From Persephonella sp. (GTDB lineage: Bacteria > Aquificota > Aquificia > Aquificales > Hydrogenothermaceae), in NCBI RefSeq assembly GCF_015487465.1, contig NZ_WFPS01000002.1, positions 1 through 43,556 on the forward strand: DNA of 43,556 nt, given 5' to 3'. The first letter of the stretch is position 1, and each line of letters begins with the position of its first letter. Shown here one piece after another: positions 15,888-22,629 of this stretch. The notes under the pieces were generated by a model, which saw only the letters and a list, made by a program, of their open reading frames with translations, did no database searches and was not told where the DNA came from. Position numbers and translations under genes: made by a program.

Positions 15888-16316
15888 TTACAACTTTTGG
15901 ATTTCTTTTAAAACCCAATTTCCTATTGGGTTCATAAACTCTGGATCTCCAAGATGATATGCAGTCCAGAGGTGAAGGCATTTTACTTTGAATGGTTTTT
16001 TGTCAAAATCCTGAATTCCCCCAATGCCGGTGGTTAAGAGCTTTTTAACCACATAGTTCGGATATTTTTTACCTTTAATAAATTCTTTTCTTTCATTAAT
16101 CTCTTTTCTGTGTAAATTTACAAATAATTCAAACAGTTTCTCATCATTTGTTACCTTTTCTTCCCACTTTTCTATCCAGCCTTTTTCTTCTAATCTTGAT
16201 ATTTTTGATCTGAGATCTTTATTTATTATCCAGAATTTTGTCGGCTGGGGTATGTATAATCCTTTTTTTCTGTCATAGATTACAGGAGGGTTTTCGGTAA
16301 TATCAATATTCTTCAT
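15888..16316 (-). CDS. DUF501-family protein
   Basis: A protein of about 142 residues with the landmarks of the DUF501 family: an N-terminal segment ending in the PTKFWIINKDLRSKISRLEEKGWI block, then GIGGIQDFD, VKCLHLWTAYHLGD and NPIGNWVL. In the family these correspond to the conserved G(V/I)GGI, VKCLHxHxAxHL and NP(V/I)G motifs; a Cys-Leu-His triad-like cluster suggests metal or catalytic chemistry, but the function is unknown. I chose the ATG at 16316, overlapping the end of the diguanylate cyclase gene, over the TTG at 16337. It probably lies in one transcript with that cyclase. Confidence 0.75.
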   Translation of the reverse strand: MKNIDITENPPVIYDRKKGLYIPQPTKFWIINKDLRSKISRLEEKGWIEKWEEKVTNDEKLFELFVNLHRKEINERKEFIKGKKYPNYVVKKLLTTGIGGIQDFDKKPFKVKCLHLWTAYHLGDPEFMNPIGNWVLKEIQKL

Positions 16317-18150
16317 TTTCCCACATTTCAGGTTCAAATCTTACCACCTTGTTTCTACCTGCCTCTTTCGCCTTATAGAGGGCTATGTCTGCATACTTGA
16401 TACACTGCCAGAACTTCTCACCGTCTATTGGAAATTCGCTGACACCTATACTTACAGTTTTTTTCAGGGTTACCCCTTCTGTTGCAATTGTTGTTTTTTC
16501 TACCCTTTCACGAATTTTTTCAGCTACTTTTACCGATTCGTCTTGGGCTACATCAATGAGAATAACAAGAAATTCCTCTCCTCCGTATCTTACAACAATA
16601 TCAGACTGCCTTACGCTGTTTTTGATTACAGAAGCAACTTTTTTCAGCACAGCATCACCTACCGAATGTCCATACTGGTCATTCACCTGTTTGAAAAAGT
16701 CTATGTCTATCATCAATACGCCGACTATTATGTTCTTTCTTGACACATATGCCATTATTTTAGGTGCAAGTTCTTCAAGAAATCTTCTGTTGTAAACACC
16801 TGTTAGCTGATCAACAAGAGACTGTCTTTTTAGTTTTTCCATATAAGATTTTGCTTCTATTACAGGGGCAACTTCTCTAAGATAAGCCTCTATGAAAGGT
16901 GTTTTTCTCTTTATTTCATCTTTTTCTTCCTTTGTATAAACAAGCTGTAGTATTATACCCACTCTTCCACCAACAAATATTGGTAAACATGAGAAAAGTT
17001 CTTCAGCCTCTCCATCTTCACAGTTTATAAAGTTTGGACATACACATGCATATTCTTCAGATATTACCTCAGACCCTGTTCTTTTAACGCGACATTGATC
17101 TGCATTTGAAAAGACAATATCTTTACACCATTTGACAGATTCATCAATATCAATCAGCCTGTTCCTCTCATAATCAACCTCGTATATAGAGTATTTGCTA
17201 ATCTTCATGTCTCTCATTAATTTTCTTAATCTCATGTAAATGTCTTCTTTTGAAGCATCTTTTTCCACAATTTTTTTAAAGTTGTATATGTTTACAAGCT
17301 CATCAACAATTCTGTAAGTATCTTTTAAAGCGTTTGTAGACTTATCAATGTTTTCTCCAATCAGGTATGAAACCTTTTTCTCAATAGAGGTTAATGTCAT
17401 ACATAATTTGTCCATTGTTTCATTGTATGTGTCTGCAACCTCTTTTGCTTCATCATTTGTGTTAATAAACACCCTTTCTTTGAAGTCCCCTTCTTTTGCT
17501 TTAGAAAGACCATTTTTCAATTTTGAAAAAAACTCTGTATAGGGCTGGAAAAATCTGATGATAACAAATATTGTGGCTATAAATATGATCATTGAAACGA
17601 TAGATGTGTTTAACAGGTTAAGAAATGCTGTTTCTCTGATCTCAGTAAGATCTGTTTTTATGTATATAGCCCCTAAGATGTCTCCAGCATCAACATTGTG
17701 GCATTTGAGACAGTCTATTTTGCCTTTAGGTTCTGCTTTGTAAGGGATTATAAGAACATAATAAACCTTGTCAAAAGATTCTTCTAATTTCTCATAAGGT
17801 ATTCCTGTTCTTAAAACCTCTATCTCCTGTGGGGATCTGGGCTGTTCGTAAGGATTTCCTTTCCCAAACTGTTTTATTACTTTTTCACCCCTAACCACTC
17901 TGATCTCTTCTATATTTTTTTTGTTCATCTTGATGTTATTCAGGAAGATATCCCTTTTATCTATCTGCCCTATGCTCATTAATGTTGTCAGGGAGTCTCT
18001 TACCATTTCGGCAACAATGTTTGATTGGTTCTTTGCGTGGTATATGTTTATTTCCCTAAAGCTCTTATATTCAAGAACCTGATTTATAATAAAAAGTGTT
18101 ATTAAGAGAAAACCAATTCTTACAAGGAGGCGACTTCTAATTGATTTCAT
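16303..18150 (-). CDS. membrane diguanylate cyclase with periplasmic c-type heme sensor and Cys-rich GAF-like domain
   Basis: A 615-residue protein. The order is: TM1 (about 10-28); a periplasmic sensor domain (about 30-178) with one covalent-heme motif CLKCH (147-151); TM2 (about 180-200); a HAMP-like linker (about 201-260); a GAF-like cytoplasmic domain (about 290-430) with six cysteines (342, 353, 369, 371, 377, 388); and a C-terminal GGDEF domain (about 440-605). The active-site loop is GGEEF (523-527), compatible with activity, and an RxxD inhibitory site (RQSD, 514-517) lies five residues upstream, so product inhibition by c-di-GMP is expected. The periplasmic part resembles heme-binding DUF3365/Tll0287-like sensors. 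It probably couples redox state or a small gas ligand outside the membrane to c-di-GMP synthesis. Confidence 0.88.
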   Translation of the reverse strand: MKSIRSRLLVRIGFLLITLFIINQVLEYKSFREINIYHAKNQSNIVAEMVRDSLTTLMSIGQIDKRDIFLNNIKMNKKNIEEIRVVRGEKVIKQFGKGNPYEQPRSPQEIEVLRTGIPYEKLEESFDKVYYVLIIPYKAEPKGKIDCLKCHNVDAGDILGAIYIKTDLTEIRETAFLNLLNTSIVSMIIFIATIFVIIRFFQPYTEFFSKLKNGLSKAKEGDFKERVFINTNDEAKEVADTYNETMDKLCMTLTSIEKKVSYLIGENIDKSTNALKDTYRIVDELVNIYNFKKIVEKDASKEDIYMRLRKLMRDMKISKYSIYEVDYERNRLIDIDESVKWCKDIVFSNADQCRVKRTGSEVISEEYACVCPNFINCEDGEAEELFSCLPIFVGGRVGIILQLVYTKEEKDEIKRKTPFIEAYLREVAPVIEAKSYMEKLKRQSLVDQLTGVYNRRFLEELAPKIMAYVSRKNIIVGVLMIDIDFFKQVNDQYGHSVGDAVLKKVASVIKNSVRQSDIVVRYGGEEFLVILIDVAQDESVKVAEKIRERVEKTTIATEGVTLKKTVSIGVSEFPIDGEKFWQCIKYADIALYKAKEAGRNKVVRFEPEMWENEEY

Positions 18151-20272: not shown

Positions 20273-21256
20273 ATGGAAAAGTTTGAAAGGATTTTAGAAA
20301 GTATAGATGATCCTATTGTTGTAGTTTCACAGGAAGGTGAAATAATCTACATGAACCAGGCTGGGTACATACTAAAGTCCCAGCTTGGGATCAAACAGTT
20401 TGATGAGCTCATAAGATATCCTTTCAGTTTTGAATTTATCAAAAAGGGTATGTCTGTAAAAGGAATTTTCAAGGAGATAAATAAAAGCAGATTTTTAATA
20501 GACGCATTTCCCTATGAAAAAAAAGGTTTAACACTTCTGATCAGAGATATAACCAGATTTATAGAGCTTGAAGAATTGTCAAAAAAAGAAGGATTGATCA
20601 TAACCGTTTCAAAACTTCTTTCTTCCGTTTTCCACGATATGAAAGGACCTGTAGGAGGGATTAAGGGGGCTGCCCAGCTGCTTAAAGAAGACATACAGGA
20701 TAAAGAGCTGATAGATGACATACTGTATGAGACAGGTCGGATTGAAAAAATGATTAATGAGATAGCTTTACTTACCAAACCTGTTAAACTTTCAAAAGTT
20801 CATATAAACATACATAAAGTTTTGGACGATGCCATTAAAACAGTTGAAAAGCAATATCCTGAAGTGGATTTTGAGAGGATATACGATCCCAGCCTTCCAG
20901 ACCTTTTGATAGATCCAGACTACATGAACAGAGTGTTTATAAATATATTAAGAAATGGGGTTGAAGCTATAAACGGAAAAGGTAGAATCAGAATTCAAAC
21001 AGGAATATCCTGGGACAAAATCTACTCGCCGAAAGGAAACAAAGTATTTATAAGAATAAAAGATTCTGGAAAAGGAGTTCCTGAAGAATTTATAGACAGA
21101 CTTTTCATTCCATTTGTTTCAACAAAGAAGAAAGGCATGGGAATTGGACTTTCTTCTTCTTACAAGATAGTTAAGGAACACGGTGGGATATTAAGGTATA
21201 TAGGAGATGCAACATTTGAGATACTATTACCTATACCTGAAAGGAGTGAAAAATGA
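20273..21256 (+). CDS. NtrB-like PAS histidine kinase
   Basis: A 327-residue soluble sensor kinase. An N-terminal PAS domain (about 1-100, starting ILESIDDPIVVVSQEGEIIYMNQAG) precedes a HisKA domain with phospho-acceptor H121 in VFHDMKGPVGGIKGAAQLL. The HATPase domain follows, with N-box NILRNGVEAI, G1 DSGKGVP and G2 GMGIGL. Lack of membrane segments and the order PAS-HisKA-HATPase match GlnL/NtrB. The start codon immediately follows the thiC stop, and the stop overlaps the regulator's ATG, so kinase and regulator are a coupled pair. The signal is unknown; no PII gene is adjacent. Confidence 0.9.
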   Translation: MEKFERILESIDDPIVVVSQEGEIIYMNQAGYILKSQLGIKQFDELIRYPFSFEFIKKGMSVKGIFKEINKSRFLIDAFPYEKKGLTLLIRDITRFIELEELSKKEGLIITVSKLLSSVFHDMKGPVGGIKGAAQLLKEDIQDKELIDDILYETGRIEKMINEIALLTKPVKLSKVHINIHKVLDDAIKTVEKQYPEVDFERIYDPSLPDLLIDPDYMNRVFINILRNGVEAINGKGRIRIQTGISWDKIYSPKGNKVFIRIKDSGKGVPEEFIDRLFIPFVSTKKKGMGIGLSSSYKIVKEHGGILRYIGDATFEILLPIPERSEK

Positions 21257-22629
21257 AAGCTGTAATATTTGATGACGAAAGAACCATAAGAAAAGTGATG
21301 GAAAAGATACTAAAAAAAGAAGGACTTGATGTGGAAACATACGAGTCAGGAGCGGAAGCTGTAAACATAATAAACAGTAAAAAACCGGAGATAGTTTTTC
21401 TTGACATATCCCTTCAGGACGCAAATGGTCTGGAGATATTAAAATCAATTGTTACACTTGAAAGCAGACCCTATGTGGTGATGATTTCAGGTCATGATGA
21501 ATACAACTACCTGATTGAAGCTATGAAATTAGGAGCTTTTGATTACATACCAAAACCTTTTGATATAAACAAAATAAGAAGCGTGGTAAAAGAGATAAAA
21601 GATATACTCTCCACCAAAACAGTTTCTGATTCCTCTGAAGTTGACATAATAGGTAAAAGCCCCTCAATGAAAGAGGTTTTCAAAATTGTAGGAAGGGCAA
21701 GTGCAAGTAATCAGCCTGTATTAATCACAGGAGAAAGCGGAACAGGTAAAGAAGTAATAGCAAAGCTGATACACAGTTATAGCAACAGGTCAGATAAGCC
21801 GTTTGTTCCTATAAACTGTGCAGCTATACCCTCTGGATTGATAGAATCTGAACTTTTTGGATATGAAAGAGGGGCATTTACAGGAGCTGACAGAAGCAGA
21901 CAGGGAAAATTTCAGGTTGCAGATGGGGGAACAATATTCTTAGACGAAATAAGTGAACTTCCCCTTGAAGCTCAGGGAAAACTTCTGAGGGTGCTTCAGG
22001 AAATGGAAGTTACGCCGGTTGGATCAACAAAAAGTATAAAGGTTGATGTTAGGGTTATAGCAGCAACAAATAAAAATCTCGTAAAGTTAGTAGCTGAGGA
22101 TAAATTTAGAGAAGATCTTTTCTACAGGCTTTCAGTCATTGAGATCAACCTCCCTCCCCTCAGGGAAAGAAAAGAAGACATACCTGAACTTATTGAGTTG
22201 TTTACCAAACAGGCATTAAAAATCCACGGTTTAAAAAAAGGAGGTTTTACCCGTGAAGCTGTAAATTTTTTGATGGATTACGAATTTCCGGGAAATATCA
22301 GAGAGCTTAAAAACCTTGTGAATAAGCTTATAGCCATATACAGGGAAAGACCTATAACTCCAGATCTTATACAACTGCAGGTAAAAGGGGATAAGACATC
22401 TTTTTCAAACTGGAGAGAAAACATAAGAAAAGAAGTTTCTGAGATGTTCACAAAAGGAAAGAAGAATATATACACAAAAATTGTTGAGGATGTGGAAAAG
22501 GTTGTAATTGAGGAAGTTTTGAAATACACTAAAGGTAATATTTCTGAAGCTTCAAAATACCTTGGAATACACAGAAACACAGTTCACAAAAAAATTGAGG
22601 AGTTAAACATAAGCAAGGGTAGGGAATGA
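21253..22629 (+). CDS. NtrC-family sigma-54-dependent response regulator
   Basis: A 458-residue three-domain activator. The receiver (1-115) has the acidic pair D7/D8, phosphorylation site D51, S79 and K101. The AAA+ domain (about 130-365) has Walker A GESGTGKE (160-167), GAFTGA loop (207-212) contacting sigma-54, and Walker B-like GGTIFLDEI. The C-terminus is a Fis-type helix-turn-helix (GNISEASKYLGIHRNTVHKKI). It activates RNA polymerase with RpoN and is driven by the kinase gene it overlaps by ATGA. Targets are not visible; it could be a nitrogen regulator (NtrC/NtrX) but the sequence alone does not settle that. Confidence 0.93.
   Translation: MKAVIFDDERTIRKVMEKILKKEGLDVETYESGAEAVNIINSKKPEIVFLDISLQDANGLEILKSIVTLESRPYVVMISGHDEYNYLIEAMKLGAFDYIPKPFDINKIRSVVKEIKDILSTKTVSDSSEVDIIGKSPSMKEVFKIVGRASASNQPVLITGESGTGKEVIAKLIHSYSNRSDKPFVPINCAAIPSGLIESELFGYERGAFTGADRSRQGKFQVADGGTIFLDEISELPLEAQGKLLRVLQEMEVTPVGSTKSIKVDVRVIAATNKNLVKLVAEDKFREDLFYRLSVIEINLPPLRERKEDIPELIELFTKQALKIHGLKKGGFTREAVNFLMDYEFPGNIRELKNLVNKLIAIYRERPITPDLIQLQVKGDKTSFSNWRENIRKEVSEMFTKGKKNIYTKIVEDVEKVVIEEVLKYTKGNISEASKYLGIHRNTVHKKIEELNISKGRE

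What the first reader, a model, noticed from the sequence alone, without database searches (positions are those of the whole stretch)
16303..18150. Diguanylate cyclase joining a periplasmic c-heme sensor and a six-cysteine cytoplasmic domain
CLKCH between two membrane helices predicts covalent heme outside the membrane. Inside, a GAF-like domain has six cysteines, including CVC-x5-C, that could bind a metal or Fe-S cluster. GGEEF and the RxxD I-site are intact. Two redox sensors on opposite sides of the membrane controlling c-di-GMP would be unusual.
Basis: partly seen in the sequence, partly recalled or inferred. Interest (0 to 1): 0.65.

Follow-up and report, generated by a model that had tools for sequence, protein, structure and literature searches.

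The report
Heme-and-cysteine dual-sensor c-di-GMP synthase
A heat-loving vent bacterium carries a membrane enzyme that makes the signal molecule c-di-GMP and appears to read conditions on both sides of the membrane, through a heme outside and a conserved cysteine (probably metal-binding) site inside; the same design is kept in three bacterial phyla, and the inner half seems undescribed.

Summary
The ORF is real: 615 aa on the minus strand, 16303-18150, in a Persephonella-like Aquificota genome. Order: TM1, periplasmic domain with CLKCH, TM2, HAMP, GAF fold, GGDEF with intact GGEEF and RxxD.

The periplasmic half is of a known kind. Its best structural match is the c-heme sensor GSU0935 (Foldseek E 6e-6), Met58 falls on GSU0935's axial Met60, and among 78 homologues CxxCH is kept in 78 and Met58 in 77. 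Such domains were named sCache_heme in 2026, with GGDEF fusions listed. The genome holds two fused CcsBA-type heme ligases.

The cytoplasmic half is the newer part. It has a GAF fold without a Pfam or PDB sequence match. The 'six cysteines' need correcting: across 112 homologues C353, C371 and C388 are invariant, while C369 (34) and C377 (13) are not. A fourth cysteine sits upstream (C342, 97/112) or as CxxC (C374, 34/112); only one protein has neither, which suggests a four-Cys site whose fourth ligand moves.

Best reading: a dual-input diguanylate cyclase, c-heme outside for redox or NO and a Cys4 centre inside, Fe-S more likely than Zn. Metal binding, cyclase activity and signal direction are unshown. 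New variant of a known kind.

The parts
16303..18150 (-). 615-aa membrane diguanylate cyclase with two sensor domains (ORF with stop codon)
   Evidence: orthologues
18067..18129 (-). TM helix 1 (residues about 8-28)
   Evidence: hydrophobic stretch read from the sequence; inference
17608..18066 (-). periplasmic c-heme Cache domain (residues 29-181)
   Evidence: AF2 model pLDDT 85; best Foldseek match GSU0935 3b42; HMM match to 3b42
17977..17979 (-). Met58, predicted sixth heme ligand
   Evidence: aligned on axial Met60 of GSU0935 (PMC8396549); M in 77 of 78
17698..17712 (-). CLKCH c-heme attachment motif (C147, C150, H151)
   Evidence: CxxCH in 78 of 78 heme-domain homologues
17551..17619 (-). 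TM helix 2 (residues about 178-200)
   Evidence: hydrophobic stretch read from the sequence; inference
17365..17550 (-). HAMP-like linker (residues 201-262)
   Evidence: weak Pfam HAMP match, E 0.037; HAMP passes its cut-off in the MCP paralogue
16831..17367 (-). cytoplasmic four-Cys GAF domain (residues 262-440)
   Evidence: AF2 model pLDDT 86, pTM 0.81; Foldseek matches led by GAF domains
16987..17127 (-). cysteine site C342...C388; conserved core C353, C371, C388 plus C342
16342..16818 (-). GGDEF diguanylate cyclase domain (residues 445-603)
   Evidence: Pfam PF00990 E 4e-47; closest PDB chain 3ign E 2.6e-37
16600..16611 (-). RxxD inhibitory site RQSD (residues 514-517)
   Evidence: RxxD in 107 of 112 homologues
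16570..16584 (-). GGEEF active site (residues 523-527)
   Evidence: GGEEF or GGEEI in 110 of 112 homologues

Best explanation
A membrane-bound diguanylate cyclase with two inputs. Outside, a Cache domain with a covalent c-heme (Cys147, Cys150; axial His151 and, when reduced, Met58) reports redox state or a small gas such as NO by gaining or losing the Met ligand; this moves TM2 and the HAMP helices. Inside, a GAF domain carries a centre held by four cysteines (C353, C371, C388 and C342, or C374 in some relatives), most likely an Fe-S cluster that reports cytoplasmic redox, O2 or NO. Both signals meet in the helix leading to the GGDEF domain and together set c-di-GMP output; whether the inputs add, gate or oppose each other is not known. 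Shown here: sequence, predicted fold and conservation. Inferred: heme loading, metal binding, type of centre, ligand, direction of the response. Rough odds: c-heme 0.95; His/Met 0.8; metal centre at the cysteines 0.75; Fe-S in particular 0.5.
For: Periplasmic domain: top PDB fold match is GSU0935 and the only HMM hit at E up to 0.1 is the same protein, with Met58 on its axial Met60; CxxCH 78/78 and Met58 77/78. Two fused CcsBA-type ligases in the genome. GAF fold. C353, C371, C388 in 112/112 proteins of several phyla; C342 or C374 in 111/112. The same cysteines persist when the N-terminal sensor is replaced: generic Cache (L046), unclassified sensor with HAMP (L205), CBS-PAS (L021), so the site belongs to the GAF. 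Precedent for Fe-S in such places: AirS C-X7-C-X-C-X17-C with [2Fe-2S] (PMC4601167), CSK GAF with [3Fe-4S] (PMC6949291). GGDEF motifs intact.
Against: No biochemistry. The sequence match to the Pfam heme family is below cut-off, and to 3b42 only E 0.017. A Zn site, a thiol switch or a mononuclear iron would leave the same conservation. One homologue (L052) has only three cysteines. Counts are not corrected for relatedness.
Confidence: 0.6

Rival explanations
1. The cytoplasmic cysteines bind structural or sensory zinc (Cys4), and the c-heme is the only redox or gas sensor.
For: Four cysteines with a mobile fourth ligand, CxxC in many Campylobacterota; a Zn-regulated diguanylate cyclase is known (DgcZ, PMC8846402).
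Against: Most members lack the CxxC knuckles usual for Cys4 Zn sites (78 of 112 lack C374); no consistent match to a Zn-finger family.
Confidence: 0.25
2. The cysteines act as a thiol switch (disulphides) without a metal.
For: Cysteine-only conservation; disulphide-based c-di-GMP regulation is listed in PMC8846402.
Against: Three invariant plus one displaced cysteine fits a four-ligand site better than a disulphide pair.
Confidence: 0.12
3. The cytoplasmic GAF binds a mononuclear iron or a heme (as in NorR or DosS) and the cysteines are only partly ligands.
For: GAF domains do both (PMC4601167).
Against: NorR iron uses mostly Asp/Arg with one Cys; here no Asp or His is among the most conserved columns of the 342-388 stretch.
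Confidence: 0.05
4. About the outer half (compatible with any reading of the inner half): the periplasmic heme is a selective NO sensor rather than a redox sensor.
For: A signalling-type sCache_heme protein binds NO tightly and does not form a stable O2 complex (PMC12889525). A NirS-like cd1 protein is in this genome and most of the genus.
Against: Met58 is kept here; in GSU0935 the Met ligand gives a redox-linked coordination switch, and CO binds as well as NO (PMC8396549). In Aquificota 21 of 46 genomes with the protein lack a strong NirS match, and within the genus NirS does not track the protein.
Confidence: 0.4

Closest known systems
GSU0935 and GSU0582 of Geobacter (c-heme chemoreceptor sensor domains, PDB 3b42, 3b47)
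   Same: Periplasmic fold, CxxCH position; axial Met of GSU0935 (Met60) matches Met58
   Different: Output is chemotaxis, no cytoplasmic four-Cys GAF known; about 20% identity
sCache_heme (DUF3365/Tll0287) family, PMC12889525
   Same: Cache fold with CxxCH insert, TM-HAMP signalling, abundant in Aquificota and Campylobacterota, GGDEF outputs listed
   Different: Below the Pfam cut-off here; the tested signalling member was thought to have water, not Met, as sixth ligand; no four-Cys GAF mentioned in the parts read
AirS of Staphylococcus aureus
   Same: Spaced cysteines (C-X7-C-X-C-X17-C) holding a redox- and NO-reactive [2Fe-2S] cluster in a sensor protein (PMC4601167)
   Different: Histidine kinase; spacing differs; no sequence comparison was made
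Chloroplast Sensor Kinase / Hik2
   Same: GAF domain with a cysteine-ligated Fe-S cluster as redox sensor (PMC6949291)
   Different: [3Fe-4S] with one identified Cys ligand; histidine kinase output
DgcO and other heme-regulated diguanylate cyclases
   Same: Heme input, GGDEF output (PMC8846402)
   Different: Cytoplasmic globin or PAS heme, single input

Membership tests
Diguanylate cyclase (GGDEF) | GG[DE]EF active site and domain match | tested here: met
   PF00990 E 4e-47, GGEEF intact
Diguanylate cyclase (GGDEF) | makes c-di-GMP from GTP | not testable with these tools
   needs enzyme assay
sCache_heme (DUF3365/Tll0287, GSU0935 type) | CxxCH in an extracytoplasmic Cache domain | tested here: met
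   CLKCH between two predicted TM helices; fold matches 3b42, WalK and CitA sensor domains
sCache_heme (DUF3365/Tll0287, GSU0935 type) | Pfam PF11845 match above cut-off | tested here: not met
   not matched in the window protein; sub-threshold in 5 of 19 members. A matter of the profile's reach: fold and motif tests are met, so it is called GSU0935-like rather than a formal PF11845 member
sCache_heme (DUF3365/Tll0287, GSU0935 type) | covalent heme actually bound | not testable with these tools
   heme stain needed; two CcsBA-type ligases are present
GSU0935 sub-type | axial Met at the Met60 position | tested here: met
   Met58 aligned, conserved 77/78
GAF domain | GAF fold | tested here: met
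   Foldseek best hits are GAF domains, E 8e-6, TM about 0.6, on a predicted model
GAF domain | Pfam GAF match | tested here: inconclusive
   none in the window protein; GAF_2 E about 3e-4 in a few relatives, below cut-off
Fe-S sensor domain | four clustered cysteine ligands | tested here: inconclusive
   conservation pattern fits; geometry not measured
Fe-S sensor domain | bound Fe and sulphide | not testable with these tools
   needs purified protein

The most novel reading that the evidence does not exclude
An undescribed family of four-cysteine GAF domains that hold an Fe-S cluster and, fused to periplasmic c-heme sensors across three phyla, let one enzyme compare redox or NO conditions on both sides of the membrane before making c-di-GMP.
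Probability: 0.4. Interest if true: 0.7.

Novelty: new variant of a known kind. Interest (0 to 1): 0.5.

Why it matters
The 2022 review of c-di-GMP sensing does not contain the terms iron-sulfur or Fe-S (PMC8846402, term search). If the inner site holds a cluster, this would add a new input type, and a protein in which periplasmic and cytoplasmic redox are read by the same molecule would give a direct way to study how a cell weighs the two. The cysteine GAF also occurs under other sensors, so it would annotate many uncharacterised proteins at once.

Tried and rejected
Six cysteines as one site: rejected, C369 and C377 are lineage-specific. Dedicated operon partner: rejected, neighbours differ between genera and are housekeeping where read by eye (mutS2, glmS, glnD-like, gltX). 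NO from denitrification as the fixed reason for the protein: not supported, NirS does not track it within the genus; the phylum-wide association (Fisher p 0.004) is not corrected for relatedness. Thermophile disulphides: rejected, the cysteines persist in Campylobacterota such as Sulfurospirillum and Sulfurimonas. PDB sequence search with the GAF alignment gave nothing credible.

Full report
What is there. The ORF at 16303-18150 is on the minus strand and encodes 615 aa. The genome is Persephonella-like: a 92%-identical orthologue sits in a Persephonella MAG. Pfam sees GGDEF (E 4e-47) and a weak HAMP. Read from the sequence: TM1 about 8-28, periplasmic 29-181 with CLKCH at 147-151, TM2 about 178-200, HAMP-like linker, cytoplasmic domain 262-440, GGDEF 445-603.

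Periplasmic domain. An alignment of 19 homologues (A2) gave an AF2 model of pLDDT 85. Its best PDB match is GSU0935, E 6e-6; GSU0582 and WalK sensors follow. The rmsd to GSU0935 is high (13.5 A); the crystal dimers are domain-swapped (PMC8396549), which is a likely reason. A profile search of PDB sequences also finds only 3b42 at E up to 0.1 (E 0.017), and in that alignment Met58 lies on chain residue 26; the CxxCH His is chain residue 110 and is His144 in the paper, so residue 26 is Met60, the reported axial ligand. In 78 homologues CxxCH is in 78 and Met58 in 77. The genome carries two long proteins that match both CcsA and ResB, the fused heme ligase. The same sensor is fused to a chemotaxis output in a 560-aa paralogue of the same genome. 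A 2026 preprint describes such domains as sCache_heme, reports NO binding by a signalling member, notes enrichment in Aquificota and Campylobacterota and lists GGDEF among outputs (PMC12889525). This half is therefore of a known kind.

Cytoplasmic domain. Alignment A1 gave a model of pLDDT 86 and pTM 0.81; the best PDB matches are GAF domains. No Pfam family matches the window protein there and no credible PDB sequence does. Searches of whole genomes found the domain in 58 of 136 Aquificota, 81 of 298 Campylobacterota and 33 of 198 Nitrospirota genomes (includes distant matches; the phylum names of the last two follow from the named loci used as centres). In 112 non-redundant sequences C353, C371 and C388 are invariant, the only columns that are; C342 is in 97, C374 in 34, both in 20, neither in one; C369 in 34 and C377 in 13. 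Lineages without C342 (the Sulfurospirillum clade, and L040 and L047) have C374. On the tree these lie apart, so C342 was probably lost more than once, each time with C374 present. The cysteines stay when the N-terminal sensor is another one (L046 Cache, L021 CBS-PAS, L205 HAMP with an unclassified sensor), so they serve the GAF itself.

Mechanism. A c-heme that gains or loses a Met ligand, a HAMP, a GAF with a four-Cys site, and a GGDEF in series form a plausible chain in which both inputs bias the pairing of the GGDEF domains. Fe-S is favoured over Zn because most members have spaced single cysteines, because the carriers named in the hits are mostly sulphur-metabolising or microaerophilic groups (general knowledge), and because AirS and CSK give precedents. 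This is inference.

Distribution and history. The full architecture is found in Aquificota, Nitrospirota and Campylobacterota; each forms its own group or nearly so on a quick tree. Neighbouring genes are not conserved across genera, so the protein works without a fixed partner. A NirS test did not discriminate.

Novelty. The heme half is described; the four-Cys GAF and its pairing with the heme were not found in the papers searched, a library that lacks most subscription journals.

Noticed in passing
window 15888-16316 (-): A DUF501 protein (PF04417, E 5e-28) overlaps the 3' end of the cyclase gene; the pair is kept in Persephonella-type genomes.
   Followed up: partly
L111:2091-3770:-: 560-aa chemoreceptor paralogue in the same genome with the same c-heme sensor, next to two mutually similar genes of about 400 aa.
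   Followed up: partly
L021, L022, L027 (Aquificota, about 810-840 aa): A distant four-Cys GAF-GGDEF unit; in L021 it follows four CBS domains and a PAS domain, with C-x8-C-like spacing upstream.
   Followed up: partly
L205 to L226 (Nitrospirota): A second family with the four-Cys GAF and GGDEF but no CxxCH; in the two scanned the N-terminal sensor is unknown to Pfam.
   Followed up: partly
L195; also G277:C23, G319:C11, G359:C3: In some Campylobacterota two four-Cys GAF proteins lie side by side on opposite strands.
   Followed up: no
L112:1535-4120:+: 862-aa GGDEF-EAL protein of the same genome, 26% identical over residues 3-602 of the query but without a detected four-Cys GAF.
   Followed up: no
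window 20273-22629 (+): A histidine kinase and a sigma-54-type response regulator follow thiC, read by eye from the translations.
   Followed up: no
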